From the NCBI RefSeq assembly GCF_000516985.1, contig NW_006917095.1:2485077-2549076 (forward strand): a stretch of DNA of 64,000 nt. Direction: 5' to 3'. The translations under genes and the position numbers were made by a program. This document shows, piece by piece, positions 35,407-58,405 of the stretch. The stretch is from Pestalotiopsis fici W106-1 (Eukaryota; Ascomycota; Sordariomycetes; Amphisphaeriales; Sporocadaceae). Every line of letters starts with the position of its first letter. Position 1 is the first letter of the stretch. The notes beneath the pieces were generated by a model that ran no database searches, was not told where the DNA came from, and saw nothing but the letters and a program-made list of their open reading frames with translations.

Positions 35407-35504
35407 CTCCCCCGCCTGGACTCGAACCAAGAACCTCCTGATCTCTACTAAACAGTCATACTGTTATATACAAGTCAGGCTCGCTACCATTGCGACACAA
35501 GGGA
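35407..35504 (-). tRNA. tRNA-like gene, possible tRNA-Thr(TGT) with 26-base intron, copy 1
   Basis: Read on the minus strand it folds as a cloverleaf by eye: acceptor arms TCCCTTG and CGGGGGA (two G-T pairs), D arm TCGC/GCGA with loop AATGGTA, anticodon arm CCTGA/TCAGG, and T arm CTTGG/CCAGG with loop TTCGAGT, a perfect RNA polymerase III B box. The anticodon loop reads CT-TGT-A followed by 26 extra bases just 3' of position 37, the canonical eukaryotic intron site. Mature length would be 72. Oddities: a T-A first pair and a G discriminator are not usual for tRNA-Thr, so identity is uncertain and a pseudogene is possible. Confidence 0.6.
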
Positions 35505-35769: not shown

Positions 35770-35867
35770 CTCCCCCGCCTGGATTCGAACCAAGAACCTC
35801 CTGATCTCTACTAAACAGTCATACTGTTATATACAAGTCAGGCTCGCTACCGTTGCGACACAAGGGA
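35770..35867 (-). tRNA. tRNA-like gene, possible tRNA-Thr(TGT) with 26-base intron, copy 2
   Basis: A near-identical second copy in the same orientation. It differs at a few loop positions (T loop TTCGAAT, D loop AACGGTA) that do not break the stems, while the acceptor, anticodon stem and intron are unchanged. The A-rich block 5'-AGCAAAAAAAGATGGGCAT and the spacer are shared too, so the whole unit was duplicated. If the gap is spurious the repeat period would be about 211 bases. Confidence 0.6.
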
Positions 35868-36707: not shown

Positions 36708-37752
36708 CTAACTATCAGAAGTCTCTGTTCTAGTTGCTGGGCGACGGAATAAATCGCGAGCCTCCTTCAAATCATCCTCCATCTTCATCAGATGGAAAAC
36801 ATCTACCGTCATTATAATGAATGACAGTCTCTCGGCGAGTTTCTGAAGCGGCTGGATAGTACCCCGCAATACTTCAAAACAATGTCCCCCGACAGGTTTG
36901 TCGTGTTTCTTCGCTATCTCGAAGAATTTCTCCCGCGCCTGGATCCATTCCGGCTCATCGCCCACTCCAAGATTGGCGGGAAAGTTCATGCTGACTCGCG
37001 CATCGACTGATCCAAGCCAAACGATGTCGATTTCGGGAACTTCGGTCAATATGGCATCAAGGTTATTGATCCCTAAAGATGTTAGCCATCGAATCTTGCA
37101 CAAGCAAGGTATGTCATACCTTCAAGAGATTCAATCTGTATCATCACTGCAGCCTGATCGTTCAGGCCCTGATGCAAATCACGTCCAGGTGTCAAAGACA
37201 TATCTGCCAACTGAGGCATTAATCGGAAGGGTGGTACAGATCGATTGCCATTTGACCTTGTGCCAAATTTGGTACTGGCCATGACATGTTTCGCCTGCTC
37301 GACAGTCTCAACCTACAAGACAGTGTTATCACTCATGTCAGATTGTATACCCAAGCCATATATTGGATTTTCAGAACCCCTTGGATCGTGTCACATACCT
37401 GTGGAACAATGATGCTTGCTCCGGCATCCAAGGCATAGCCAATATTGGCATGGTCATGTCCCGGCACTCGCACCCAGGGGATAGTGCGGCCTTGACTCAT
37501 GAAGATAGTTTCATGGACCATTGTTGTCATGGTTTCGACATTGCAAGCAGTATGCTCCCAGTCGATCCAAACACAATCAAAATTCATCGGTGCAACCGCA
37601 CGTGTAATTGGAATGGAGCTCAACCCAGCATAGTAACCGAGAAGTGGTGGGATTCTCCCTTTGTAGGCATCCCGAACAGCATCACGTGCTCGATGGGGTT
37701 GAAAGAAAGACGGTGCGGCGTAAGCCAGCATGCCCTGCGACGAAGTATCCAT
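36708..37752 (-). CDS. HpcH/HpaI-family aldolase
   Basis: Minus-strand exons 37752-37399, 37312-37120 and 37072-36708, with introns of 86 and 47 bases, give 303 residues. Family blocks are FDCVWIDWEHTACNVETM, GYALDAGASIIVPQVETVEQA (restored across intron 1), IQIESLEGINNLDAIL (restored across intron 2) and DIVWLGSVDARVSMNF, which correspond to the metal- and pyruvate-binding regions of class II 2-keto-3-deoxy-acid aldolases. These enzymes reversibly split or join pyruvate (or an analogue) with an aldehyde. The usual GPxDLS near the active site is replaced by GSVDAR, so substrate or activity may differ. It is divergent from an MFS gene and shares promoter elements with the isocyanide synthases, so it probably belongs to that locus. 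Confidence 0.85.
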
Positions 37753-38329
37753 CTCTCTCAGACTTGATTTGAATGTAATTCAGGAGTGCAGAATATGGAG
37801 AAGTTTTCGATTATTTTCATGCGTCGAAATCGAGTCTTTTTACTCTGACGATGGTCCAGGTTCTGATCTGGTATAAGGACCTTCAACAATCGACTTTTAT
37901 TGTCGACTACAGACCATTCGAGCAGTTGAACGACAAGGCCTGGAGATATGAGATAGGGGTTAGATATGAATAAGTTCCGAAGCCGACCGCGAATCGGCAA
38001 TTAATGAGCATTGGATGATTCTCCGATAATTGCGCTCGGGACTTTACAGAACAAACTCAAATTTTGCTGTGGGTCTGCACCAGGCAAATAGTCGATTGCA
38101 CTTACGCGGCATACAAGTCGATGCCGACCAGTCGGTCTTTATGAGCTTAGATGATTGGGCAGTCACCACGTATCTTGTGCATATCGTGGTTTGAATTTGT
38201 CATGCAAGCGAAAGGACCGCCACACTTTTGTTTACAAGAAACTTTCATGTCTGTCTTTCGATTCCACAACTCACCGAGAATCCATTTTGTTCTATTCGGA
38301 GACAACAGAAACCCAATCGTCACTAAACC
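37753..38329. promoter_or_regulatory. Divergent promoter 1 with two TCGGRACTT elements
   Basis: The 577 bases between the aldolase and the MFS transporter contain AAGTTCCGA at 37972 to 37980 (TCGGAACTT on the minus strand) and TCGGGACTT at 38036 to 38044. The same element recurs in the two other divergent promoters of the locus. A regulatory role is inferred. Confidence 0.5.
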
Positions 38330-39646
38330 ATGAAACATCACAGACAGCCACCCCCAGTCGAAAAAATGATTCATGGAAGTCTTTTTGCCTGGATGCAAGT
38401 TGTATCAGGACACCTAGTGATATTCAATTGCTGGGGTTATATTACGTCGTAAGTGAACCATCTCTATACCGCTAAATTGTCGACTTATGACACTAGGTTC
38501 GGGCTTTTCCAACAATATTATGTTGAAAATGGGACGGGTTCAGCTTCTCAGATCGCGTGGATTGGGTCTCTACAAATGCTTCTTCTCAATATCATTGGGC
38601 TTTTCTCAGGACGGATAGTCGACCACGGATACCTTCGCCATTCTGTGACTCTAGGCTGTTGTCTTCAGGTGCTTGGTGTTTTTATGACAGCATTGTCCAC
38701 AAAGTACTGGCAGCTAGTTCTCGCGCAGGGTATATGCAGCGGTCTCGGGCATGGTTGCCTATTTGCGCCCACGATTTCGAATATTTCAGCCCATTTCAAG
38801 GAACGAAGGGCATTAGCGGTTGCATTAGCAACGTGCGGTGCTTCAACTGGAGGCATGGTGTTTCCAGCTATTGCTTATACCTGTCTGCCATCTTTAGGCT
38901 TTCGGTGGACTGTTCTCATCATGGGCTTTGTCGTCACGTTCAATGCTGCTATAATTATATTCTTCACCAATAGTAGCAACGAAATCCGAAAGCCGCAGTC
39001 TCTCATCGATCTGCGGGCGTTCAAAGAGCCGCCATACTCACTTTTTGCCTTGTGCGCGTTTTTCTCGCTGTGGGGCTTATATTTCGCATATTTTTACGTT
39101 AGTCATCTGGTCTTGAACACACTCGCTTTGCTAACAGCTTAGGTCGGAATATACGCACGTACCGTTTTACACTTCTCCGCAAAGCAATCCTTATTAATCA
39201 TTATGGCAATGAATGGCATAGGCGTTGTTGGACGAGTAGCTGCAGCACTTTTGGCAGACAAATACTTCACGCCTTTGAAATTGCTGATTCCAGCAATGGG
39301 GGTCAGTGGAATCTTGCTGATCTGTTGGAATTGGGTATCCTCGACTCAGGGACTATTTGGGTGGGCCTGTACATATGGGATGGTGGCAAACACCGCTCAA
39401 AGTCTCTTCCCGGCCAGCGTTGGCGACTTGAGCCGGGACCGGACGCGCCTCGGAACAAGAACAGGAATGGTCCTAGCTGTGACCGGTATTCCTTGCTGCT
39501 TCGGACCACCACTGGGTGGATTACTCGTTGAGATCAACCATGGCCACTACCTCTACGCACAACTATTCGGGGGGCTTACTTTGATTATTGGAAGTTTGGT
39601 TTTCTTGACAGCTCTTTTTTATCGAAGAAGAGATCAAAATAGATAG
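38330..39646 (+). CDS. MFS transporter, monocarboxylate-porter type
   Basis: Exons 38330-38448, 38497-39097 and 39143-39646, with introns of 48 and 45 bases, give 407 residues. An in-frame stop just upstream supports the ATG at 38330, unless an undetected earlier exon exists. The first helix (SLFAWMQVVSGHLVIFNCWG) and the join SFGLFQQYYVENG match the fungal MCT family, as do GLGHGCLFAPTISNISAHF, HFKERRALAVALATCGASTG and the late GFVVT and GPPLGGLLVE segments. Roughly eleven to twelve hydrophobic helices are visible, with a short N-terminus. Such carriers are common in fungal metabolite clusters, and export of the product or uptake of a precursor acid is inferred from position. Confidence 0.83.
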
Positions 39647-40551
39647 CGGGAAGAACGTGAATCATGAAACTCTTTTCACTTGAATATTATTCTCGTAAGT
39701 CATGGGTCGATTCAGCGGTAATGAGTATCCATGCTGCTCGAGGTGTCAATTGCCATGGGCGCATATCAACAATAAGGGCCAACTCGGTCATTAAGAGAGT
39801 ACCAGAACAATCAGGTAGGACAAAAGATGGGGGTTTGCTAATTCATGTTTTCACACCAACAGTCTGGTTCCTAAATAGCAGTTTCGAGTCGCTCTATTGA
39901 CACAGACAAGTCCTCTAGAGACTACTACGAGCGCCTTCAATGTTCACTGTTGTGGATTGTCTTGTAGGTCCATTATTATGAAAAGGGGAAATTAAATGGG
40001 CATCGGGCGGGTTTCTGGCAAGATCTTGGATCACTCATGTGCCGTCGAGCGCATGGAAATTTATATGCGACTTTCAAACAAGTCTCCATCTACGAGACCT
40101 CAAAGTGTCTGTACACTCTGGTACGGTCCATTTAGGACCACAGGGGTCCTTCAATTCCCCATAGATCTTGTGTGACGTTATTTTCTAACATGGACCCTTT
40201 TCATAACGAAATTCCCTGTGCCCTATTCGGTGAGCTATCTCCTAAATGTTTGATTCCTTATTATTCTATTCATTTGCTCATATAGCCCCGGATTGTAGAG
40301 GCCTCCCAGGCAATTTTAAGACACTAAATGGCGAATTCGAGAAGATGATGGTAGCAGGAGAACATAAGACTCCGTGTTCTCGAGACTACTGACAGCGGGC
40401 GAGATTGTCTGAAATATCAAAGAAAAAATCTAAATGTGTTTTCTAGCTTAGCAACCCTATCAATTCTCCAGGCCAATTTCGTACAGCTTCTCGTATTCAG
40501 ACAACAGCCGCATTCGCCACATACACGAGAGCCGTGTCAATGTTTCCTTCG
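39647..40551. other. Convergent intergenic region
   Basis: About 900 bases between the MFS and isocyanide synthase A genes; a 78-codon frame near 39664 has no family resemblance. Nothing else recognised. Confidence 0.45.
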
Positions 40552-41852
40552 TCAAGAAATATCAAAACCGCGAAGCTGTATGGTACCGAACCGCAATGCA
40601 AGGTCAACCAATTTGCCTTTGGAATCGTCATCCAGTTTCCCATTTTTCTCATCTCGATCCAGATTCGTAACAGTGACAAAACCTCCATAAGCATGGCTTA
40701 TCTCGACACGACGATTCCAGCTAAACATGGGATGTTTTTCTCGAACCAGGTATGGCGAAGAACCCCGGCTGATTATTTCAAACTGCTCAGTGTCGCGGAA
40801 CTGACTCGAGTGCCCGGTCTGAAACCTCCCATCTGCTCTGACCAGAACGCAAGAGTGCCAAGGCATCATACCGAACTCATCGGGTTGAGGAATCAAGGGA
40901 ATCGAGATTTTTGATGCTCCGGTTGATCGATGGATTGAAAGTCTTATATGGTCTGGGAACCGAGACGATAGAACTTGTTCATAAGCCTATAGATATTAGC
41001 AGTCATACAATGCCATCAGGTGGAGGAAACGTACCAGTAGTCTTTGCATCATCCGCTTTGCTACTTCTTGTGTTTCGCTTTCATACTTCGCCGGGGAAGC
41101 TTTGATGACAGGGTCAACCTCAGGCCCCCATCGAAGGTCTTCAAATGCTGACTTCACATATTGTTGGTATGTTAGCAGAGTGTCGGGGTCATTTTCGATT
41201 TTCGCCTGTAGCTGATCGCGCGTAAGAGTGAGGCGCTTCTCCATTTCCTGTCTACACACGTCGGCAACTACCAAGTACTCTTTCTTTGATAGGGAGTCGC
41301 CATCGCCAAGGCCCAGGACATCGAATAGCCGGGTGAATTTGATGTGAGTACATCCCTTCTCCTTGGCCATCTGGCGAAGCTGGAGCCCATAGTCGTAAAA
41401 GTCGCTGTCAGGAATTCCTAGAAGGTCTACATAATACAAACACCGATGTTAATGTTCTGCCGAGTAGGGACTGCAGGGTATATCCTACCATTGTACACTG
41501 GACCGTCAGACACAAGCGTCAATTCCACTCCCATTGGATATATTTGAGCCAAGCTTGTGCAGAGATGATCCAAGCGTGCCAATCCTAATTCTTCACCGAA
41601 ATCGGCGTTGCCACTCAACACCTTGTCCAAGTTCGGGTTTTTCCATGGGAACGCCGGTAGCAACAACTTAATTGGGCGTCCTGAATTTTGCGAATTGAGG
41701 ATTGTGGTGCGAATAAATCCTTCGTACGCAGTCGACAGCTTCGTTTGTAGATGGTCCTTGGACTCAGAGATAGCAGAGAAGGAGCGGAAAACATGAAGGA
41801 TATCCTCGACAAGCAGTTCTGAGGCGGGTAATATTCTCGGGGTTGTATCCAT
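40552..41852 (-). CDS. Isocyanide synthase A (DIT1/PvcA family)
   Basis: Minus-strand exons 41852-41489, 41426-41035 and 40986-40552 (introns 62 and 48) give 396 residues. The family core is clear: [50 protein letters not shown] (joined across intron 1), [29 protein letters not shown] (after intron 2), [10 protein letters not shown] and SPYLVRE. PvcA, IsnA and fungal XanB convert an amino acid amine to an isonitrile with ribulose-5-phosphate; yeast DIT1 makes a formyl-tyrosine precursor. An in-frame ATG at 41936 would add 28 residues, but a TATA-like TTTATAAAGG at about 41961 to 41970 lies too close to it, so 41852 is preferred. It is divergent from synthase B and clearly different from it in sequence. 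Confidence 0.87.
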
Positions 41853-42551
41853 GTTGTCTGAAAGATGAAATGACGATAATTGACGTGGAATTGAACAGAA
41901 TGAGTGCAGTAATTGAGAGCTTGCAAATCGTTCCATGATTTTCCTGTCCAGGATGATGCTCCTTTATAAAGGATATAACTAGATTTAGATGGTGACAGAA
42001 ATTTCAGCACGGAGGTAGCGTACCCGCAATTCACTACAACAAACCAAGCTCGAAGAATGCTCTAGTCTCACCAGTCAATTCGGAGGTATGAGTTGATGCA
42101 CCAATAGGACGCAAGCGTGCGAGCAGTCCAGTCGACATCTGTTCACGGTGTGGGGCCCCGCATTCATACTCGAGTGTGTTCCTTGCATGATGCTTTCCGG
42201 AGGCTGGTCGGAACTTAAGGATCTCGGATGTTAAGTGATTTTGAACATACTGGGAGTGATGACGATGTCGGCATTACATCGTACAGGGTCTTCATAAAGA
42301 CGGATGATTTCGGCGATTTGTCAACGCTGCGCAGTCGGAACTTTTCTGGGGCATCGGCCACTTGGAGCATAAACTGGATGAGCTCAATGTTCAATATTCC
42401 ATGCTACAGCCACTATATATTATAATAATATTGAGTGATAAGAGGCACTGTTACTCTAGTAATCATACGACATCTCATATTCACAGTTCAGAACATTCCA
42501 TACTGCTAAGTACAAAGCACAAAACATTTTGTATCAATAACTTGAACAATA
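41853..42551. promoter_or_regulatory. Divergent promoter 2 with two TCGGAACTT elements
   Basis: The 699 bases between the two isocyanide synthases hold TCGGAACTT at 42208 to 42216 and 42335 to 42343. A TATA-like sequence for synthase A is at about 41961 to 41970 and an AT-rich block (near 42413 to 42440) could serve synthase B. Confidence 0.5.
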
Positions 42552-43889
42552 ATGGCAGTCCAGGCACCTCGACTCGGCCATATCGCCACTCGCTCTGATG
42601 ATGAATCTCGCTTTCCTATAGACTCGGAACAAACCATCAAACGTATCGGAACCTATCTTGCAGAAGTCGACAGAGTGGTTGGATTGATCATGGATATTCT
42701 CGAGAAATTCAGCCTTGTCGAGCCAGGAAATACCGAGTATGTTGGCAGAAAGGTGTTTTCGCCAAGAGTCAGGCGTCATGTCATTTGTGGGCATGAGATA
42801 CCAATGGTACTTCCAGCGTTTCCATCGAAGAGTATCAACTTCCGAGACAAAGTACTCGGAACTTTGCCTGACCTGGGCGAAGAGCTAGCACTGGATAGAC
42901 TCAACGATCTTTGTTCTCAGATACAAAAGATATACCGACCAGGCGCGATGGTGCTCATCGCAACAGATGGCGCTTGCTACAATGGTACGCACACGCATTT
43001 GATCAACCCAGCATTCACTAATCGAATTGAACAGACCTTACTGGAGTGAGCGACTCGAATCTTTGGGAGTATGGGGCCACACTCCGTGCCATGGTCGCCA
43101 AGAAGGGGTACCATTGCATCAAGTTCGCACGTTTCATGAATCTCCTGGGATTATACACGGAACCCGTCATGACCAAAGAGACCTTTTGCCGTCTTCTACA
43201 ACCAAGCCGCGAGAGTTTGATGCAACGATACCTCCCTCCCAATTTCGACGTCAATGTTTGCATCAGGGAAGATCCTGATTACCATGATACCTACAATGCA
43301 TATGCAAGATTTCTGAAGAAAGATCTTGCATTCGGTGCGATTAGGGACGCAATGACAAGCGGCAAGAAGTACAAGGCAAAGGTTAATCAGACTGCAAAGG
43401 ACATGATCACCCGTGGCGTGGTAAGTTTTCACATGAGGGTACGTACCTGAGCCAAACTAACAAAATTTGATCTAGGCCTATGCGGCGCTGATCCGCGAGC
43501 AATGCCCTGAGCATGTCCGACTTTCCATCCATCCTTCGACAGGACTCACCAAGATATTCATAGCTCTGGTCCCGCAGCCGGGCTCCGTTTCAATGAGTCC
43601 GTGGCATTGTGCTGTGGCCGTGGATGTACAAGGGAGGTTCAAAACTGGACACAAGAGCGTTTGGCAAGAAACGCATGACTTGGTGTACAAGTCTAATCGC
43701 CCGTACTTCTTCCGAGAGCGTTCGGACTTGTACAATTGGGAGGCAAAGGTAGACTTTGACCATCTTTACGACCGCAAGCTTGTAATTCGCAACATGGCAG
43801 ACAAGCCCCATGAACTCTCCGAGTCTGATAAGGGACGGCTGGCCTCCCTCATTGCCCTTCAGGCTCAAGTCACTTTGGAAGGGTTTTAG
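42552..43889 (+). CDS. Isocyanide synthase B (DIT1/PvcA family)
   Basis: Exons 42552-42984, 43035-43420 and 43476-43889 (introns 50 and 55) give 410 residues. Core blocks are MVLPAFPSKSINFRDKVLG, PDLGEELALDRLNDLC, VLIATDGACYNDLTGVSD (restored across intron 1), CIKFARFMNLLGL, HVRLSIHPSTGLTKIFI, MSPWHCAVAV and RPYFFRER. Both introns sit at the same protein positions as those of synthase A, so the two genes share an ancestor with that structure. Expected activity is isonitrile formation on an amino acid in the cytosol. The usual SDG before the first intron is TDG here, and the N-terminus is about 20 residues longer than that of synthase A. No P450, oxygenase or methyltransferase of the xanthocillin type lies next to it. 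Confidence 0.88.
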
Positions 43890-45029
43890 GGAAAGAATTT
43901 GGAAGTTGGTTCATCGAATGCAACATTTGGAAGCACACCAGTCTTTACCGCCAAAGTCCTGATTGAAGTCAGGTTGAACGTTGGTAGTGTGAAACGGCGG
44001 GTGAATACCACAATCTAGCAAGTAAATTTTCAGTACAATCTTGGATGCATTCATGTAGTTAGCATACAGCAGTACTATCCAGTCATTACCGCCAACTTTC
44101 ACTACTGCCGGATGCGCTTGATGTTTGAGGTCTTTCCTCTTCTGCAGAAGTGATGCGCGGTTGAGTGATGAGTGATTATTGCACCAGGATCTATATTGAT
44201 TTTACCTGGGACGGTACCGTCATACAAGCGACTTGATACACCGGATTCGGCGCAACAAGAAATCATCCCAGGGGCTGGAGACTGTGAGTCGACTTAGCTC
44301 GGCAATTACATAGGAACAAAGTAAAGCATCGTTGTGTTCAGTGGGGTGCGTGCCACTCCAAATTCCATTTGAGTGTGCCAAGATGGATCCTCGTGCGTCA
44401 AGTTACCCATGACGAGGCACCACAATGAACATCTGGGGCTGTTCGAGGTCTTTCTGCGTACTGTCGAGATTTTACACCGCTTGCGACACAGTCGGTCCGG
44501 AACCCCCCGAATTCGACATGCAAGACTTAAAGACGATAGAGCTGCCATGCTATGCCTAGCTGATACCACGATCGTCCCCAAGTGTATTTTCATCAAAACA
44601 TGAATAATACCTGAAGGAACGAGTGTTAGTGAGCCTAGAAGTAATATGTCCTTGCCTCGATAACGAGGCTCTGCGAACGATGCTCTTTACATTAGTTTTT
44701 GATAATAACTTTTACCCCTAGCTATTTCTTGAGTAACGACCTGCCAGTCTACTCGGAGATCCACGTCATAAGATAACAACCCCAAAACTTGCGGCAGCGA
44801 AAGATGTCCATATTGCCCTATCAGATCTATACTCCTGTTCGAAAATGCCGACCATTTCTCTGAATCATACAAGTGTTTTGAGGGAAGCTTGAACGAAGAG
44901 AAACTAATAGTTACAATCAAGGCCATCATGACACGTCAATTGATACCACGGACCAACTGATATAATTTAGGAAAACTGAAATCGATCTATTTATTGATAA
45001 CACGAAGGAAATGGAAAATTTCGCTTAAT
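43890..45029. other. Interval with unassigned frames, possibly a decayed gene
   Basis: About 1.1 kb between the ends of synthase B and the A-T-R enzyme. Minus-strand frames at 44929 to 44687 (80 codons) and 44596 to 44306 (96 codons) follow each other, but neither resembles a family known to me and no convincing splice join was found. Confidence 0.35.
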
Positions 45030-48000
45030 CTAATAGCCCCATTGCTGAAGCCATAAGTCCATCCACTCTGGACTGACGTGCACGAGAGATGACAAGGTCT
45101 TACTTCTGGCAACACTCAGACCCGTTTCGAGTGGCACGCTTTGCGAACCCGACTTCAACGACTCAAAGAAATCCAGGAGCTTCAAACCAGGAAGTTCTTC
45201 AGGGCCGATTGTCATGTTCTCATCATGTACTCGACGCAGTGCATCTACCCATTCGTTCCAAGAAAGAATCTTCAATGACTCACCGAGCCGTTCAGCTACC
45301 ACAGGTACCAGCTCGGACCATGTAGTGGTATTCGGGTTGATAGCATGATAGAATCTTACATCTTTGGTATGCGATGAGGTTTGCGACGAGAATTGCCCCG
45401 TCGCCATGTTTTGCTCAAGACCAGCAAGTTCAATAATGACGTCCGCCAATATATCCACAGGAATCCAGTCGATTCGATTGAAATCTCCAAGAGATGACGG
45501 TAATATGCCGAGATTATGAGAAGTCGAGATGATCTGTTTTAATTAGTTTCAAATTACAGAATACTGAACGGGGAGGATGACTTACTGTAGGCAGCCACTC
45601 ATTTCTATTCCATTGACCCTCGCCCGTTCTCACGGGGCCTGCTATTTGACCAACGCGACATATAGAAGCGTTGATACCAGTTCTAGCTACAGCGTCTTGT
45701 ATGATCATCTCACAGACTGTCTTCGCACAGATGTAGCCATTGGAATCAATCTCATCGGAGTGAATCGGGGCCTCAGGGATCGTTGGAGCGCCGCGGACTT
45801 GTGTAGCTACTCCTATGGTAGAGATAAAGAAGAGACTTGAACTCTTCCTGGTACTCTTGCATAGATCGATCAGACGACGTGTGCCTCGAATGTGAGGCTC
45901 GAACGATTCAAGGTCCCAATTGAAGTTGACGGGCCATTGGTTGTCTAAGGAAAGTCAGTCTAATCCCTGCTTTGAAATACGTGTACCTACGAATGACATG
46001 CGAGACCTCATGAAGCAATTCACTGTAGTCTTCAAATCTCAAGCCAAAATACGGCTTGGAAAGGTCTGCGTGAAGAAATTTGACTTTCTCTTTTGGAAAA
46101 TCCGTACCAAGCCCGCGACATATGTTGACATCAGTCTGTAGTCTGAGACCGACTTCCGCGCGATTGAGACAGTAAATTGTCGCAACATGGTCCAAAGACA
46201 TCAACCTGGCAAGGATGTATGAGCCCAAAGATCCCGTACTTCCCGTCAGCAACACTGTGATGGACTCGCCCCTTGGGCTATAGAACTCTCTGAGGCGAGC
46301 CATTTGGCGTTGCATATCACGCTTTTGAATGGGGGACCCTGCCGAAGAGCCAATGGGCTGCCCCATTCTCAATATGTGCGCTAAGAACAGGGACAGACGT
46401 TCGATGGTTGGTTCCGTGTAAATGGTTCTCGAAGAGATTGCTGTCGGTTCGATTCCTTTGCTCGACAGCATGAGTCGAAGCGACTTCGTAAGGCGCAGCA
46501 CGAAAAGTGAATCAACTCCAGCCCTAAACAGGTCGTCTTGAGGTGAAAGATCTCCATACCCACTTCCAAGGCTACCAACAAGTTCTAGGAGAGAAGATTG
46601 GATATCTCCCAAAGAGCTAAAATCAGCACTTTGAATGATCTCGATTGCTGATTGAACTAGTTCCTGTTCCTTGTATAGACTGTCGATATCACCAGCGTAC
46701 ATCTGCAGCGTAGCTCGCCGCTTGATGGTGCGTTTGTCGGTACGTAGAAATGGCTTATCCGGCCGGGTGAACATGATGTAATCTTTGCCAATAGTACCAT
46801 ATGATGGCGATAACTCGTTGGCCTGTTGTACGAGGCCATAGATTGCATCCACCATTTCATTCCTTTCCGAAAGATTGCGGACTTGGGAGTTCTTGGGCTC
46901 AATCAGAAGGCCAGCCTGGAACTTGCCACTACCAATGACAAGACAGCCGGCAACGTTCGGATGAGAACTGACAAGCGTTTCAACAGCGGAAGGCGCAAAC
47001 TTTTGCGCGTTAGACAGAACAATCAGTTCATCTGCTCTCCCCCGGTAGATCCAGTGATTCGGTTTCGTGGGATGCTTCGCATAGAGGTCCTTGAGTGACA
47101 TTTCATGAACGTCAGAAAAAGTGTGGAACAATCCCTGGAAGAGATTTGCATGCTCGTTCTTGACAACATGATGCTCGTAAAGCCCTGGTTCGATTTCGCG
47201 GAATTCAAATCCCGACCATGGGTGCCAGCAAAAGTAGATCCAGTCCTCGCGATCTGGCACAAGATTTCCGATGAAAAGACCCTCCGTAGTCCCGGTAAGA
47301 TTGAGTACGCGTACCACGCTGTTCACTTTGGAGGCGGGAGCATAGCGAACCGGCCCTCCAGATGCGCATATCAACTTCGAATTGGCGAATTTATCAATCA
47401 CATCGAAACTCTCGCCTATTTCATCGACAAGAGAGGGCACAATATTCCAGATATCGACAAGGCCCTGTTCGGCCAATGATGCGATAAAATCGACGTTTGG
47501 GATGATACTCGAGGGGCCAATGATGCCGTGCGTTTCATAGAAGTTGTTCATCAAGAGATTGAAGACCATTCCAGCACCCTTGATAGTAGTTAGCAGTCTG
47601 TATTATTTCCGGCCTAAAGTGATATACTGACATGGTAGAAGGGAAACGCTGAATATAGCCTATCTCCCGGGCTCCACAGCGACGTCCAAGGCTTCATATC
47701 ATTGTCTCCTTCGACCGATGGAAGCAATCTGACTGCATCCACTGTGCTCAGAAGTCCATTATTCCACCTAATCGGTTTAGGGAGGCCGGTTGTGCCCGAC
47801 GTATGTAGAATGCAGAAAGGATCCTTTGATGCGTCTTTCCAGACCTTTTCATATGGGAAATGAGGCACAGGGTCTGCTTCAAGCAACTCAAAAAGACCTG
47901 GAACATTCACCACCACCATTTCCCTCTTCTTTAGAATTTCAGACACGGCTGAGAATGTCGATGAGGCGTTCATCCAGATTTTGCAATCAGTATCCTCCAA

Positions 48001-48333
48001 CAGGGCCATGTTGCCATCCAAGCTGTTTCGAGGCGAGAGCAACAACGCTTGATATCCTGCCTTGATACAGGCAAGCACAACCATCACGTATCGTATGTCA
48101 TGTGGCCCGATATATGACACGGTTTCGAAGGTCGAGCTACGACCCAGATCTGCGGCCAGTTTCCACGCAAGGGTGTCCACCGCATTGGCCAGTACACGCG
48201 CGGTGACATGATGCCAACTCGTCAGTTGCGGGTCGAGTGGAAATGAGTACACAATGCGCTCTGGTGAGCTCTTGGAACGATCGTCCACGATCTGGGGTAT
48301 CAATCTCCGACCAAAACTGTGAGTTGCGGTCAT
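45030..48333 (-). CDS. NRPS-like adenylation-thiolation-reductase enzyme
   Basis: Minus-strand exons 48333-47632, 47578-45991, 45944-45586 and 45533-45030 (introns 53, 46, 52) give 1050 residues. The adenylation domain (1 to about 540) shows HTSGTTGLPKPI, NLTGTTEG, IYRGRADELIVLSNAQK and TDKRTIKRRA. The carrier domain has DDLFRAGVDSLFVLRL with Ser about 591 for phosphopantetheine. A LYS2-type thioester reductase follows: LLTGSTGSLGSYIL (about 679), VIHNQWPVNFNWDLESFEPH (restored across intron 2) and an SDR-type YICAK pair. Such enzymes load a carboxylic acid and release it as aldehyde or alcohol using NADPH. There is no condensation domain. Next to two isocyanide synthases, an isocyano acid is an attractive but unproven substrate. 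Confidence 0.92.
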
Positions 48334-49045
48334 ATTGGGTATAAGTTTCGGTGCTCTTTGTTATTGAGATAAGAGGAACAGTTCAACAATGAAAGAACAA
48401 TTCGTCATTGAGGGTGCTGAATAGACACCAATTTAAATCTGATTCCTTATGACTGGACATCTATAGATTATCAAATAGTTATGGTTTTTACTCGGGACTT
48501 TTGTTTTCGAAGCCTGTATCTTCCGGTATCAACGGAGTCACTCTTGTGGTATATCTGTAAGTATTGCATATTCTGTAACGGGCAAGATACTAGACTTGAT
48601 ATGCGTAGATCTATAACGGAAGTTTATTTCACTTCTTCATTGATAATCATTGTTAAATGCCGCCATTGCGTTCTCCCTTCATCGGGCTTTTTCAATGGTA
48701 TTGACCGGCCTTGCCAAGATCGAGTTCAATATACTGCCAGGATATGGACCGGGGGTCATTGTTCCCCGAAAGTTTAAATTCTTAAATGCCGATGGAGAAG
48801 CCGGCGGAAGCCGGTGGAACCGCCTCGATACTGAACACGTCGGGCGCTCAGCCGAGGTGCCGTGTGATGTGACGCAACGGACAATACGGATAGAGCCAAT
48901 CCTAGTCTCTCAGAAACCCCAGACGCGGTCTGGACACTTTCAATTCTCCCTTCCACCAAAACACACGGTGCTATAATCCATGATTAAAGAGTACTATGGC
49001 TTTTGTCTCCTCACTCAGCTTCTGCAAACCAGTGAGAGCACTGTT
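48334..49045. promoter_or_regulatory. Divergent promoter 3 with one TCGGGACTT element
   Basis: The 712 bases between the A-T-R enzyme and the hydratase-like gene contain TCGGGACTT at 48492 to 48500, the same element as in promoters 1 and 2. No gene was recognised inside. Confidence 0.5.
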
Positions 49046-49842
49046 ATGCGCGAGCAGAAAACCAACCTCTTGGCCATCTCAAAGTCGTCCAATGTCTTGG
49101 TATAGAGATATGCACCGTTCAAGTAAGAATATAGCCAACATCGCCATGTTAGAGTGAATTTGCCGTCGCTAACAATAGTCGTCAAGGTCAGCCTGTGAAT
49201 GTTGGCGTCGTTCTGTTCCCGGCCTTCCAAGCGCTCGACGTGTTTGGTCCTCTGGATGCACTAAATATATTGTCGCGATCCCACTGCATGAACTTGCACA
49301 TGATTGCCGAAACGATGGATCCTGTAACGACAGCACTACTGCCGTCGCCTCATCGGGCGGCTTCACAATTTAGTCAACTCATCGTGCCAACTTGCACGTT
49401 CGAGACTGCGCCATCGCTTGACCTCCTCATAGTCCCTGGTGGACAAGGAACGCGGGATCCGAAGATTTCCAAGGCCGTCTCGTTTGTAACAAGAGTTTAC
49501 CCGTCGCTGCAACAACTCATTGCTGTCTGTACTGGCGTTGGAATCGCGGCACAGGCGGGAGTGCTGGATGGCAAGCGCGCCACAACAAACAAACTCTCAT
49601 GGGATTCTACAGTAGCTTTACGCCCAGAAGTCGATTGGGTTTACCAGTCCCGTTGGATTTGTGACGGAAACATATGGACTTCTTCGGGTATTAGTGCAGG
49701 TATTGACGTGACTCTCGCATGGATCGAGTCAAGCTACGGTGAAACAACCGCAACAGCCATCGCAAATAGGATGGAGTATGTACGGGCCACAGATCCCTCT
49801 CAGGACCCCTTTGCTACGCTATACAAGAAGGAGACGAGTTAG
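49046..49842 (+). CDS. DJ-1/PfpI protein, probable isocyanide hydratase
   Basis: The conserved frame has no ATG of its own before residue VNVGVVLFP. A proposed first exon (49046 to 49099, 18 codons) joins through a 53-base GTATAG...TTAG intron to exon 2 (49153 to 49842), giving 247 residues. The core aligns well with Pseudomonas isocyanide hydratase: FPAFQALDVFGPLDAL carries the Asp equivalent to its Asp17, IAVCTGVGIAAQAGVLDGKR the nucleophilic Cys (residue 144 in this model) and its Thr neighbour, and GISAGIDVTLAWIES follows. That enzyme hydrates an isonitrile to an N-formamide. In this locus self-protection or tailoring of the isonitrile is the likely role. Related DJ-1/PfpI proteins of unknown function are common in fungi, so context carries part of this call. 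Confidence 0.75.
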
Positions 49843-53984: not shown

Positions 53985-55274
53985 ATGGAAGACGACCATG
54001 CGAATCCTTCCCGTCCCAATGGCAAACGCGTTGCCTGCGATCGCTGCCGTGGACAGAAACTGCGATGTCTCCGAACGCACGACAATCCTGCAACTTGCCA
54101 GAGGTGCATACGAGCCTCAGTACCCTGCATGACTGATTTCTCAAGACCTCTGGGAAGACCTCCGAGCAAACGAACAGGCCACATAAATGACAACAATTTA
54201 GAGACAAGTGGTGACTCGCCTGCATCAGCTGGGCAGCTCCATCTGAGCGACCGAGAGGCTGATAGTGGTGGCATTGAATATCTCGAAACGGCCATGTCCG
54301 AAGACCCTTTTGACGCAGAAAGCCTCGCAAATTTTCTCAGTAATGAGAGCCCCCTACCACCAGTTCACTTTGATACTGCATCCACACCGAATGGATTTGA
54401 CCATTTCAATGGTGATATTCTGTCGCTATTCAATCTGTTATCAAAGGACTTTTCAACAGAGTGGCCCGAGTTCGAGCCGACCAACAAGCTAGATAACGCT
54501 GAAAATCTTTCTAATGCATTTGACGAAGTCACCGATATTGGGATTCAGATATCCGATATCCACCTTCGGATTTCAAAGCAGCTCGTCTTGGTGCGGCAAC
54601 TCCCCTGGGATAAAGAAACGATACTCAAGTTGCGCTGTTCTGAGGGCAGCAATACCTTTAGGCAACCGCATCAAATTGAATCGGTGGAGGAATTCGATCC
54701 CATGACAAGTACTATGTCTCTGATTTCAGAGTTCACGCAACTCACCAAAGGTTTACGGGAACCAAACAAAGACGATAACCGAAGATTCTCCTCAGCTCAG
54801 CATTTAGCGAACCCTTCACGGTTTATGGACAATGCCAATCTCGCAACAATGCTTTCGACAAATAACAAACTTCTATCAATTTTCGAATACATCCTGTCGC
54901 GCGCTATATCCGCACTATCGGACGCTAAACGGCAAAATTCCACCATTCCGCTAAGGCCTTTGCTGTCACTTGGAAAGTACGAGGTTTCACCCCAAATCGA
55001 ACGAAGTATTGTCGCAAGACTATTATCAAATCTAGTCAGTCATGAGATTGGTATGCTTGAGCGTACTTTGGGAGTTCCCCCAGACTGGGCTGTAATCCCT
55101 CAGGACTTCAAAGACGACTACCGTGGGTCAGCTATGCTTGGTGGAACGCGAGGTGAGACAATGCTCAAGGCGATGAACGTAGAGGAGAGGGACGGAACGG
55201 ACTCAAGCGATCGGAAGGACTGTATAGTAGACCTTCTCAGAAAGAGAATTCATGAGCTCGGACAGATGATGTAG
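53985..55274 (+). CDS. Zn2Cys6 transcription factor, AflR-like layout
   Basis: An intronless frame of 429 residues from the ATG at 53985. The N-terminal binuclear zinc cluster is complete: CDRCRGQKLRC (C-x2-C-x6-C) then CQRCIRASVPC (C-x2-C-x6-C) at residues about 22 to 50, followed by the basic segment RPLGRPPSKR. The remainder is acidic and Ser-rich, with a helical C-terminal region (KLLSIFEYILSRAISAL; PLLSLGKYEVSPQ; MLERTLGVPPDWA) like the AflR-type regulatory domain found in cluster regulators. Such proteins bind CGG half-sites in the nucleus. The TCGGRACTT elements of the isocyanide locus contain CGG, so it is a candidate pathway regulator, but it lies about 4 kb to the right of the last core gene. 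Confidence 0.85.
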   Translation: MEDDHANPSRPNGKRVACDRCRGQKLRCLRTHDNPATCQRCIRASVPCMTDFSRPLGRPPSKRTGHINDNNLETSGDSPASAGQLHLSDREADSGGIEYLETAMSEDPFDAESLANFLSNESPLPPVHFDTASTPNGFDHFNGDILSLFNLLSKDFSTEWPEFEPTNKLDNAENLSNAFDEVTDIGIQISDIHLRISKQLVLVRQLPWDKETILKLRCSEGSNTFRQPHQIESVEEFDPMTSTMSLISEFTQLTKGLREPNKDDNRRFSSAQHLANPSRFMDNANLATMLSTNNKLLSIFEYILSRAISALSDAKRQNSTIPLRPLLSLGKYEVSPQIERSIVARLLSNLVSHEIGMLERTLGVPPDWAVIPQDFKDDYRGSAMLGGTRGETMLKAMNVEERDGTDSSDRKDCIVDLLRKRIHELGQMM

Positions 55275-56302
55275 ACAAGACTCGCCAATCATTGATGGCT
55301 TACAGTCAAGAGGAATACATATGTATATATGCAGATGTTGTAGTACCTTACCCACTATTAGGCTAGTTCATAGTGTGGAGCTTCACATTTTGTTCAGCTA
55401 GCATAGTGGTCTGGTGCGATAGCAGATGCTGTCTTTTAGGGCACTGCGATGCATTGATGCTTTCACTATTCATGATATAGCGAGCGTGTTTCAGAAGCTT
55501 CGAGTAATATGACGCAAATGCGTTCCGCCGCTGTAGGAGCTAATAGCTGACTGAATGAAGTCATAATACCAGCCAGCTGATTGCATGGGAGTAATGGATT
55601 TGAGCTGGCACGATTGCGCAATCACTAGGCCTAGGTAATTTATTCGATAGACTCAAATCAAATCATATGAGCCCTGTTCGTATATATTCGGAAGATCGTG
55701 ACGGCAATCACCTGGTTTAGCAAATACAATTACAGAGAACTAGCAAAACCATGCCGAACTGTGCCGAACTGTGCCGAACCTCGATTCGTTATAGCGAGAC
55801 TCGGAGGTTTTGCGAAGAGACTCGGAACTTAGGAAAGCTAAAGAGGCCAGCGGTACGAAATATCCCTCCGGAAGGTATTGTTAATCACGCCAGAGCAGTA
55901 ACGCGGCGCGCGCGGCCGAATACTTGGTCCCCGACAACTAGGAATTAGAGCTCCGAACAAACAGTCTAGAGCCAAGTGTGAGGGTAACGGTATGGCGAAG
56001 AACACCCGACAGTGGGAAGGGAATCACACAGCAATGCGCTGATAATGCAGCTGGTACAGGGAGTCGTCACCTATGTGTGTCTGCTGGCCCGATGATGATG
56101 ATTGTCCACGACACACTATTCCGATGAGCTAGAACCTCCAAGCCTTCATCCGAGAAAACACCTCGATTCACAAGATAAAATAGCTCGGAAGTAATATATC
56201 GTTGCATGCACCTGTCATTTCTATTCCAAACGACGAGTTGATATGCATTGACTTAATGCCTTTACTGCCGTACTGAGATTGAAGCATCAGCAACACGCAA
56301 TC
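55275..56302. other. Intergenic region containing an LTR fragment
   Basis: About 1 kb between the regulator and the monooxygenase. A triple ten-base repeat (TGCCGAACTG type) at about 55751 to 55780 borders the LTR-like fragment listed next. Confidence 0.5.
55791..55936 (-). mobile_element. LTR-like fragment, 5' half of the LTR
   Basis: On the minus strand it starts TGTCGGGGACCAAG and shares a closely matching block (CGTACCGCTGGCCTCTT, CGAGTCTCTTCGCAAAACCTC) with 61918 to 62012 on the plus strand. Similarity stops at the CGCTAT end. The GC-rich portion (GGCCGCGCGCGCCGCG) seems lost or mutated in the other copy. No coding remnant is attached. Confidence 0.55.
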
Positions 56303-58405
56303 ATGACTTATTCTTCGTCGTACCAGTGGGATGATGAACCTATCCGGCCCCTTGATGCTGACAGCACAATCGGCTGGGCCGGTGTACCGTTGTCGGACAC
56401 GCTGGGGTACTACGGTGTCATTAAGCGGCCGCAGCTCCCTACCAATGACATTTTGGGATTTGTCCCAGATTATCTGTCTGTGGACGTTAATCGTTTGGTT
56501 GATTCATTTCTCCCGGCTTTCGCACAAGCTCTCGAAGCTCAAGATGTGGATGCCATCCTTAGCTACATCCATGACGAAGGCTTTTGGAAGGACGTGGAAC
56601 TGCTCACTTGGGATATCCGTGCACTTGCAGGTCATGAGAACATCAGGCCGATGCTTACGGAGAGACTCGCCAAAACCATGATCAGCAATGTCCGCATCAG
56701 CCCGCATATACCTTCATCGTTGGAGACTCTCGGGGAGGATTTATCCTTCGTTTCTTTCCATTTTGAATTCGATTTCAAACATGGCACAGGCGTCGGAGTC
56801 GCACAGCTCAGCCCAATCAAGGCCAAGACTGATGCAGCAACCGAGCTGGCCGATATAGACTCGTGGAAATTATACACGATTGGGACTGCCATCAGTACCG
56901 TTGACGGATGGGATGCTGAGACTGGCGACAGGATGCGAAACAGAGAGGCAAGAGTTCATGATCCCTTGGGTAGGGGTCGCAACTACCAAGAGCTAAGAGA
57001 AGACGAGCGTGAATACAACAACGGCTGCGAGCCGACGGTTGTAATTATTGGAGCCGGACACGCTGGTCTCGCCATGGCTGCAAGGTTGAAAGTTCTCGGG
57101 ATACCACATTTGATAATCGAAAAAGAAGGCGCGGCGGGACAAAGCTGGAGCAGTCGCTACGCCTCGCTGTCTTTACATGGACCTACCTTCACAAATCACA
57201 TGCCGTGTCTGGCATTTCCTCACTGGTTCCCAGAGTTTCTACCCGCACAACAGCTATCCAAATTTCTACATCACTACGCCGAAATTATGGACCTCAATAT
57301 TTGGACCAAGTCCAAAATTGACGGTGAGAACGCAGTCTACCATGAAGACGAGGGGAAATGGACCATTTCAGTCGAACGCGAAGACGGTAACAAGCGCATA
57401 CTCCATCCCAAACACCTTGTGGTCGCTACTGGCATCTCTGGCACGCTTCCCAACGTTCCCGAGATTCCAGGCATGAGTGACTTTGAGCAATCTGGAGGCC
57501 TGATTGTTCATTCATCCCGTTTTAGAATAGAATCTGACTGGGTCGGTAAGAAATGCATTGTTGTTGGAGCCGGGACTTCCGCTCATGACGTCGCGTACGA
57601 GCTGAATGAGAATGGCTGCGAGGTAACCATGATCCAGCGGAGTGCGACACATGTCATGTCTATAGACAGGAGCGTTCGGAATTTCTTCAAATCCCGCGAA
57701 AACACAAACCGCCCGGGAGGTCTTACAGTAGATGTCGTGGACCGTTCACTTTACCTCAAGCAGCCGTATCCGGTTGAGTATCAGCTCCTTTGCCGTGGCC
57801 AGAAAAAGGCTCGAGAGCTCGACGCCAAGCTCCTGCAGTCGTTACGGGATGTCGACTACCGCCTCCACGACGGATATCACGGCGGGGGTTCTTACTCCAT
57901 GTTTCCCTTCGACCAGGGTGGTTTCTATTTTGACAATGGCTGCTGCAAGCTCATAGCAGACAAGAAGATTGCGCTCAGACATTCCGAGATAGATCATTTC
58001 GCGGAGGGAATTGTTGTCTACAAAGATGGTACCAGCCAGGAGGCCGACATCATCATCTTTGCCACAGGCTATATGCAATCCAAAAGCCCAATCCAGGCGC
58101 TTATGGGTGATGAGATGGCGAGAAAGTGCCACGAGCGGTGGGAGAAGGGCAATGCGCTCTTCCTTGGACCCGAGGGGGAATCGATCATCCATTTCTGCCC
58201 GCTGCCACAAAAAGGCCTTTATGCCATGCACCATCAGTTTTCTTTCTGCCGATTCCACTCGGCACGGCTCGCGCTTCGTATCAAGGCGGAAGAATTAGGC
58301 ATCGACGTAATGCCCTATCAAGGCAAGCCCATTGGGCCGCCAAGTACTGCAGCTGGGCGTCAACCTCGACCACCTAAGACTACACAAGAAGTTAGCATTC
58401 ATTAG
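56303..58405 (+). CDS. Flavin-containing monooxygenase with N-terminal NTF2-like domain
   Basis: An intronless frame of 700 residues from the ATG at 56303 (ATCATGA). Residues about 50 to 190 look like an NTF2/SnoaL-type fold. The flavoprotein part has an FAD-binding VVIIGAGHAGLAMAARL (about 250), WSSRYASLSLHGPTF, VVATGISGTLPNVPEIPG, a second dinucleotide motif VVGAGTSAHDVAYEL for NADPH (about 421) and FATGY near 580. The layout resembles fungal YUCCA-like and indole-pyruvate-type monooxygenases. It could oxygenate an N, S or carbonyl centre. It sits between two LTR-like fragments in the same orientation and lacks a TCGGRACTT element of its own outside the LTR, so membership in the isocyanide pathway is open. 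Confidence 0.88.
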   Translation: MTYSSSYQWDDEPIRPLDADSTIGWAGVPLSDTLGYYGVIKRPQLPTNDILGFVPDYLSVDVNRLVDSFLPAFAQALEAQDVDAILSYIHDEGFWKDVELLTWDIRALAGHENIRPMLTERLAKTMISNVRISPHIPSSLETLGEDLSFVSFHFEFDFKHGTGVGVAQLSPIKAKTDAATELADIDSWKLYTIGTAISTVDGWDAETGDRMRNREARVHDPLGRGRNYQELREDEREYNNGCEPTVVIIGAGHAGLAMAARLKVLGIPHLIIEKEGAAGQSWSSRYASLSLHGPTFTNHMPCLAFPHWFPEFLPAQQLSKFLHHYAEIMDLNIWTKSKIDGENAVYHEDEGKWTISVEREDGNKRILHPKHLVVATGISGTLPNVPEIPGMSDFEQSGGLIVHSSRFRIESDWVGKKCIVVGAGTSAHDVAYELNENGCEVTMIQRSATHVMSIDRSVRNFFKSRENTNRPGGLTVDVVDRSLYLKQPYPVEYQLLCRGQKKARELDAKLLQSLRDVDYRLHDGYHGGGSYSMFPFDQGGFYFDNGCCKLIADKKIALRHSEIDHFAEGIVVYKDGTSQEADIIIFATGYMQSKSPIQALMGDEMARKCHERWEKGNALFLGPEGESIIHFCPLPQKGLYAMHHQFSFCRFHSARLALRIKAEELGIDVMPYQGKPIGPPSTAAGRQPRPPKTTQEVSIH

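What the first reader, a model, noticed from the sequence alone, without database searches (positions are those of the whole stretch)
36708..49842. A compact fungal isocyanide locus with two different isocyanide synthases
Seen: two DIT1/PvcA-family genes, an A-T-R NRPS-like enzyme, an HpcH/HpaI aldolase, an MFS carrier and a DJ-1/PfpI protein with isocyanide-hydratase residues, within 13 kb. Known: PvcA/IsnA/XanB-type enzymes make isonitriles; the xanthocillin cluster combines one synthase with a P450 and a methyltransferase, and the Aspergillus crm gene fuses synthase and NRPS modules. Inference: this set, with two stand-alone synthases, a separate carboxylate reductase and an aldolase, does not match either described arrangement that I know of, and may make a new reduced or chain-modified isonitrile.
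Basis: partly seen in the sequence, partly recalled or inferred. Interest (0 to 1): 0.92.

Follow-up and report, generated by a model that had tools for sequence, protein, structure and literature searches.

The report
Fungal isocyanide cluster with paired synthases
A fungus that lives inside tea plants carries six neighbouring genes, two of them sister isocyanide-making enzymes, that probably build a reactive metabolite; paired enzymes of this kind are already known in fungi, but the neighbouring carboxylic acid reductase suggests an aldehyde- or alcohol-bearing product not yet described.

Summary
Window 36708-49842 of Pestalotiopsis fici W106-1 carries six intact genes: HpcH/HpaI aldolase, MFS carrier, two divergent single-domain isocyanide synthases (ICS-A, ICS-B; 699 bp apart), an A-T-R carboxylate reductase (CAR) and an isocyanide-hydratase-like DJ-1/PfpI protein. 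Two-ICS fungal clusters are already in print: A. fumigatus ICS4G (icsA/icsB) and gene cluster family GCF 1, whose two ICSs form two clades from one ancestor. My tree shows that pattern, and in 9 of 12 species showing both (P. fici included) the two lie on contigs of equal length. So the pair is an old, conserved module, most likely GCF 1. Both enzymes keep the 13 charged residues invariant in 29 other ICSs. The CAR is a divergent relative of Neurospora NcCAR with its motifs intact, apparently missing from the published list of 13 P. fici CARs. The aldolase is the weak part: an extra copy of a widespread family, with no linkage to the pair in the three other species I could check. Best model: alpha-isocyano acids are made, one is reduced to aldehyde or alcohol and exported, and surplus is hydrated. 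New variant of a known kind.

The parts
36708..37752 (-). HpcH/HpaI-type aldolase, 303 aa, exons 37399-37752, 37120-37312, 36708-37072 (PFICI_08074); membership in the pathway doubtful
   Evidence: Model; Pfam PF03328 7e-20; 100% identical to PFICI_08074; best solved relative macrophomate synthase 1izc, 5.9e-32
38330..39646 (+). MFS carrier, monocarboxylate-transporter-like, 407 aa, exons 38330-38448, 38497-39097, 39143-39646
   Evidence: Model chosen among 30 splice combinations; PF07690 3.3e-34; best two NCBIfam models are an L-lactate and a monocarboxylate transporter, both below cut-off
40552..41852 (-). ICS-A, single-domain isocyanide synthase, 396 aa, exons 41489-41852, 41035-41426, 40552-40986 (PFICI_08075)
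   Evidence: Model; PF05141 5.3e-85; PvcA 3e59 3.4e-28; keeps 13 of 13 charged columns that are invariant in 29 other ICSs
41853..42551 (.). 699-bp divergent intergenic region shared by ICS-A and ICS-B, candidate bidirectional promoter
   Evidence: Gene models; spacing; promoter function inferred
42552..43889 (+). ICS-B, single-domain isocyanide synthase, 410 aa, exons 42552-42984, 43035-43420, 43476-43889 (PFICI_08076)
   Evidence: Model; PF05141 3.9e-87; PvcA 3e59 4.8e-28; keeps 13 of 13 charged columns that are invariant in 29 other ICSs
45030..48333 (-). A-T-R carboxylate reductase (NRPS-like), 1050 aa, exons 47632-48333, 45991-47578, 45586-45944, 45030-45533
   Evidence: Model; Pfam; R domain vs NcCAR 8aep 6.1e-81; tree and motifs
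48980..49842 (+). DJ-1/PfpI protein, isocyanide-hydratase-like, exons 48980-49099, 49153-49842; start codon uncertain
   Evidence: Model; PF01965 1.1e-13; InhA 1.5e-18, best hit 3mgk 4.9e-35
53985..55274 (+). Zn(2)-Cys(6) transcription factor, 4142 bp beyond DJ-1; candidate regulator, membership unproven
   Evidence: Motif; PF00172 7.6e-07; spacing; the automatic model had a wrong first exon

Best explanation
A biosynthetic gene cluster built on an old, conserved pair of single-domain isocyanide synthases. Shown by sequence: two sister ICSs with the family's invariant charged residues, an A-T-R carboxylate reductase with intact motifs, a monocarboxylate-type MFS carrier and a DJ-1/PfpI protein, in 13 kb. 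Inferred: each ICS turns the amine of an amino acid into an isocyanide with ribulose-5-phosphate as carbon donor; as neither ICS carries a fused dioxygenase and none was seen in the neighbours scanned, the carboxylate survives. The two enzymes differ at several otherwise conserved positions and probably take different amino acids or act at different steps. The CAR then loads an alpha-isocyano acid on its carrier domain and reduces it to the aldehyde or on to the alcohol; the MFS exports the product and the DJ-1 protein hydrates surplus isocyanide to formamide. The aldolase is either a local recruit that extends the aldehyde with a pyruvate-type donor or a neighbour without a part.
For: Domains and intact frames. 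PvcA homology of both ICSs. Of 48 columns at least 93% conserved in 29 other ICSs (one of them the first Met), 13 are charged (K, R, H, D, E) and invariant, and both P. fici enzymes keep all 13; ICS-A departs at S72N, G80S, P83A, I101L, G210Q, F214S, A300L and R329S (that Arg is 28 of 29 elsewhere), ICS-B at V142C (22 of 22 in its clade) and G233A. ICS-A and ICS-B clades: 100/100 and 94/87, together 92/87. In 9 of 12 species showing both, P. fici included, A and B lie on contigs of one length; tags are consecutive in P. fici, Fusarium decemcellulare (NM208_g5974/g5975) and Lecanicillium saksenae (NLG97_g5215/g5216). CAR motifs intact and placement beside NcCAR 88/94, not starred; the two characterised members of that clade reduce aryl-aliphatic, aliphatic and a few heteroaromatic acids (PMC9605436, passages), and NcCAR can over-reduce aldehydes to alcohols (PMC10168641, abstract and passages). 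CrmA makes 2-isocyanoisovaleric acid, detected free in small amounts (PMC9381783, passages), so a free isocyano acid is a real fungal intermediate. Isocyanide hydratases occur in 21.1% of ICS clusters.
Against: No metabolite, expression or enzyme data. CAR, carrier and DJ-1 linkage to the pair elsewhere untested. The DJ-1 protein is closer to an uncharacterised Clostridium ThiJ protein (124.7 bits) than to InhA (70.7 bits), so hydratase activity is a guess. ICS-A has lost one Arg and one invariant Ser of the family. The pair A+B as one clade is supported at 92/87, short of the tool's star. In 3 of 12 species A and B show different contig lengths. Aldolase not linked elsewhere. The substrate of the CAR may be another acid.
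Confidence: 0.55

Rival explanations
1. A plain member of GCF 1: the two ICSs, carrier and hydratase make the GCF 1 isocyanide; the CAR and aldolase are unrelated neighbours or lineage-specific decoration of minor effect.
For: Two-clade pattern matches GCF 1; the aldolase shows no linkage to the pair in the 3 other species checked; the genome has many CARs (15 PF23562 matches), so one beside the pair is less striking.
Against: The CAR lies between ICS-B and the hydratase-like gene, 1140 and 646 bp away, with intact catalytic motifs.
Confidence: 0.25
2. The aldolase and the CAR form a chain-extension step: the CAR makes an alpha-isocyano aldehyde and the HpcH/HpaI enzyme adds a pyruvate-type donor to it, giving a 4-hydroxy-2-oxo acid bearing an isocyanide.
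For: HpcH/HpaI enzymes are aldolases that join an oxo acid to an aldehyde (family knowledge); the D..EH, R, E and D residues align with those of HpaI 2v5j (their roles recalled); the nearest solved relative is macrophomate synthase, recalled as a fungal secondary-metabolism enzyme; the cluster copy is a divergent extra copy beside a native-looking one on C8.
Against: The family is widespread in Sordariomycetes, I saw no role for it in the isocyanide papers read (0 occurrences of aldolase in PMC10153163), and it is not linked to the pair in the 3 other species checked.
Confidence: 0.15
3. The extra aldolase copy is a self-resistance gene: a spare, insensitive version of a metal-dependent enzyme that the isocyanide product inhibits by binding its metal.
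For: The genome holds another copy on C8 whose nearest rows are Truncatella and Seiridium (3-row set 97/93), and the cluster copy is a long-branch extra (end branch 0.85).
Against: I know of no essential role for this family; no inhibition data; membership in the cluster unproven.
Confidence: 0.05

Closest known systems
GCF 1 of Nickles et al. 2023 (PMC10153163, preprint; sections 20, 21, 31 and passages seen)
   Same: Two ICS enzymes in one cluster (GCF 1 is named among the monodomain-ICS families), forming two clades from one common ancestor; broad but discontinuous distribution
   Different: Core genes of GCF 1 are in a figure and supplement I could not see; whether it has an A-T-R reductase or an aldolase is unknown to me; aldolase and reductase have 0 occurrences in its main text
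A. fumigatus ICS4G (icsA/icsB), Lim et al. 2018 (PMC5974471; passages)
   Same: Two ICS-domain genes in one cluster
   Different: IcsB carries a fused dioxygenase; tags AFUA_4G01370 and AFUA_4G01420 are not neighbours; here both are single-domain and adjacent
crm (CrmA) clusters, Won et al. 2022 (PMC9381783; passages)
   Same: An ICS acts together with an adenylating NRPS-like part; the route goes through 2-isocyanoisovaleric acid
   Different: CrmA is one fused protein of ICS, AMP-binding, carrier and transferase domains; here two separate ICSs and a separate A-T-R reductase
xan (XanB) cluster (PMC5974471; passages)
   Same: ICS family enzyme
   Different: XanB is an ICS-dioxygenase with a P450 partner (XanG); neither ICS here has a dioxygenase domain and no P450 was found in the genes scanned
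NcCAR-type fungal carboxylate reductases (clade III of PMC9605436; passages)
   Same: A-T-R architecture, intact motifs, nearest relatives in the tree
   Different: Divergent (36% to the closest P. fici paralogue; 41% to the NcCAR R domain); substrate unknown

Membership tests
DIT1/PvcA isocyanide synthases (PF05141) | Full-length PF05141 domain and family-invariant charged residues | tested here: met
   13 of 13 invariant charged columns kept in both, but ICS-A lacks one invariant Ser (Asn) and one 28-of-29 Arg (Ser)
DIT1/PvcA isocyanide synthases (PF05141) | Forms isocyanide from an amino acid and ribulose-5-phosphate | not testable with these tools
   Needs enzyme assay
GCF 1 | Two ICS backbones in one cluster, in two clades with a common ancestor | tested here: met
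   (A+B 92/87, not starred); pair 699 bp apart
GCF 1 | GCF 1 core gene set | not testable with these tools
crm | Fused ICS, AMP-binding, carrier and transferase protein | tested here: not met
   ICS-A and ICS-B carry PF05141 only; A-T-R enzyme separate
xan | ICS fused to dioxygenase, P450 partner | tested here: not met
   No PF02668 on either ICS; no P450 in the nine genes between 36.7 and 61.5 kb that were scanned with Pfam; genes left of 36 kb were not scanned and the gene finder can miss genes
A. fumigatus ICS4G | One single-domain ICS plus one ICS-dioxygenase | tested here: not met
   Both single-domain
Fungal carboxylate reductase (A-T-R) | A, T and R domains with catalytic motifs | tested here: met
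   T by its Ser motif only
Isocyanide hydratase | Asp and Cys-Thr residues of InhA aligned | tested here: inconclusive
   They align (roles recalled), but the better hit 3mgk has them too, so they are not diagnostic
HpcH/HpaI pyruvate aldolase | Catalytic and metal-binding residues of HpaI | tested here: met
   Alignment to 2v5j; roles recalled

The most novel reading that the evidence does not exclude
A fungal route in which two sister isocyanide synthases feed a dedicated carboxylate reductase to give an alpha-isocyano aldehyde or alcohol, possibly extended by a recruited macrophomate-synthase-like aldolase: a new way to diversify fungal isocyanides, and a first function for the ICS-A/ICS-B module.
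Probability: 0.3. Interest if true: 0.68.

Novelty: new variant of a known kind. Interest (0 to 1): 0.42.

Why it matters
Isocyanides bind metals and some are antimicrobial, and few fungal ICS clusters have known products. The paired single-domain module is seen here in Sordariomycetes, Dothideomycetes (Boeremia) and Eurotiomycetes (Penicillium antarcticum), and ICS-B alone in a leotiomycete (Hyaloscypha; classes recalled), and I saw no product for it in the papers looked at. A compact locus with two ICSs and one reductase in a culturable endophyte makes the question why two synthases are kept directly testable.

Tried and rejected
Horizontal origin of the aldolase: the cluster copy sits near Hypocreales rows, but holding it with the Xylariales rows is not rejected (p-AU 0.123), so no claim. 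Cluster extension to an amidase: two Colletotrichum entries (P0029, P0060) are merged amidase+ICS-A models, and the window has an amidase at 59566-61527, 43% identical to P0060; but a P. fici paralogue on C1 matches better (377.7 against 340.7 bits), so orthology is not shown. Copper control: the Mac1 core TTTGCTCA (from passages of PMC11563359) occurs 5 times in 64 kb, 3 of them between 36 and 62 kb; no test against chance was made and no claim follows. One ICS being dead: not supported, since no invariant charged residue is lost, though ICS-A has lost an invariant Ser and a 28-of-29 Arg. Literature searches for this arrangement; one search found 0 papers with both isocyanide synthase and carboxylic acid reductase; one search found 0 with PFICI_08075; the P. 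fici genome paper PMC4320822 has 0 occurrences of isocyanide or dityrosine in its main text, and PMC8403587 has 0 of isocyanide, isonitrile or DIT1. Only open-licence full text was searched. No structure prediction was run.
Full report
Where it is. The window is C5:2485077-2549076 of a 51.7 Mb, 20-contig genome. My ICS-A, ICS-B and aldolase gene models match Pestalotiopsis fici W106-1 proteins PFICI_08075, PFICI_08076 and PFICI_08074 at 100% over their full length, so this is that fungus, an endophyte of tea (start of the abstract of PMC4320822).

What is there. A simple splice-aware gene finder, trained on long open frames of the window, recovered five of the six genes; the MFS gene was modelled by hand from its splice sites. 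Order: aldolase (-), MFS (+), ICS-A (-), ICS-B (+), A-T-R enzyme (-), DJ-1/PfpI (+), with gaps of 577, 905, 699, 1140 and 646 bp. The consecutive numbers 08074 and 08075 for aldolase and ICS-A suggest that the public annotation lacks the MFS gene between them (inference).

The two synthases. PF05141 matches three genes of the genome: this pair, and an ICS-TauD gene on C16. Among chosen hits the pair falls in two clades, ICS-A (13 rows, 100/100) and ICS-B (15 rows, 94/87), which together form one side of a branch (92/87, not starred) against 17 other fungal ICSs (a quick 72-row tree with two bacterial rows as outgroup gives 99, 92 and 94). Twelve species show both enzymes among the named listed hits (83 of 83 for A, 120 of 173 for B); in 9 of 12, P. 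fici included, the longest contig has the same length for both, and in 3 (Dactylonectria, Colletotrichum siamense, Penicillium sp. DV-2018c) it does not, which may reflect different strains. Locus tags are consecutive in P. fici, Fusarium decemcellulare and Lecanicillium saksenae. Both enzymes keep the 13 charged columns that are invariant in 29 other ICSs; ICS-A departs at eight conserved positions, among them an invariant Ser (Asn) and a 28-of-29 Arg (Ser), and ICS-B at two. So both are probably active, with different pockets; this is inference from sequence.

The reductase. The R domain matches the Neurospora crassa CAR R domain (8aep; 6.1e-81; identity of 8aep from PMC10168641). With 12 other full-length A-T-R enzymes recovered from the genome (14 loci fetched, 2 gave only short frames), the cluster enzyme is sister to NcCAR and its two P. 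fici relatives (88/94, not starred; the NcCAR row holds the R domain only), with the adenylation, carrier (GVDSL) and reductase (TGxxGxxG, YxxxK) motifs intact (motif names recalled). Li et al. 2022 list 13 P. fici A-T-R enzymes by locus tag (passages); none lies between 06834 and 08544, and the tag of this gene should lie just after 08076 (inference), so it seems to be missing from their list. Their clade III, with NcCAR, reduces aryl-aliphatic, aliphatic and a few heteroaromatic acids.

The aldolase. Relatives are widespread in Sordariomycetes (484 hits, 120 listed). P. fici has a second copy on C8 whose nearest rows are Truncatella and Seiridium (3-row set 97/93), while the cluster copy is a long-branch extra; a native duplicate is not rejected (p-AU 0.123). 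In the three other ICS-pair species with a listed aldolase (F. decemcellulare, C. siamense, Stachybotrys elegans) the aldolase contig differs in length from the ICS contigs; this is weak evidence, since rows are clusters and assemblies differ.

How it probably works. Shown: the genes, their intactness and their kinship. Inferred: amino acid to alpha-isocyano acid by each ICS; carboxylate kept, since no dioxygenase is fused to either ICS and none was found in the nine genes scanned; reduction by the CAR to aldehyde or alcohol; export by the MFS; hydration of surplus isocyanide to formamide by the DJ-1 protein. The fate of the carboxylate is what sets this locus apart: in xan-type enzymes the fused dioxygenase consumes it (recalled), in crm it is esterified (fumicicolins are esters of N-formylvaline), and here a reductase is the plain candidate to act on it.

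Known or new. Two-ICS clusters are known. I found no paper joining an isocyanide synthase with a carboxylic acid reductase (open-licence full text only). The verdict is a new variant of a known kind, of moderate interest, because product and CAR linkage elsewhere remain untested.

Noticed in passing
window 59566-61527 (-) and proteins P0029, P0060: An amidase gene about 10 kb past the locus resembles (43%) an amidase that is merged with ICS-A in two Colletotrichum gene models; a closer P. fici paralogue exists on C1.
   Followed up: partly
window 53985-58405: A Zn(2)-Cys(6) transcription factor and an FMO-like oxidoreductase lie between the locus and the amidase; they could form a second small cluster or an extension of this one.
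   Followed up: partly
window 35407-35504 and 35770-35867 (-): Two tRNA genes, each 98 bp long against a 71-position model (probably intron-bearing), found by Rfam but not by ARAGORN with the bacterial code, flank the locus on the left.
   Followed up: no
L024 (G000:C16:82000-91900): The third ICS gene of the genome reads as an ICS-TauD fusion, apart from this locus, beside a gene that looks like an FAD monooxygenase (by eye; not scanned).
   Followed up: partly
L025 (G000:C8:75500-78500): Second copy of the locus's aldolase family, 78% identical to Truncatella angustata.
   Followed up: yes
window 45030-48333: This A-T-R enzyme seems not to be among the 13 P. fici carboxylate reductases listed in PMC9605436.
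   Followed up: partly
ICS-B residue 142: All 22 ICS-B clade members examined have Cys where 28 of 29 other ICSs have Val, next to the conserved DG motif; possibly a substrate-related change.
   Followed up: no
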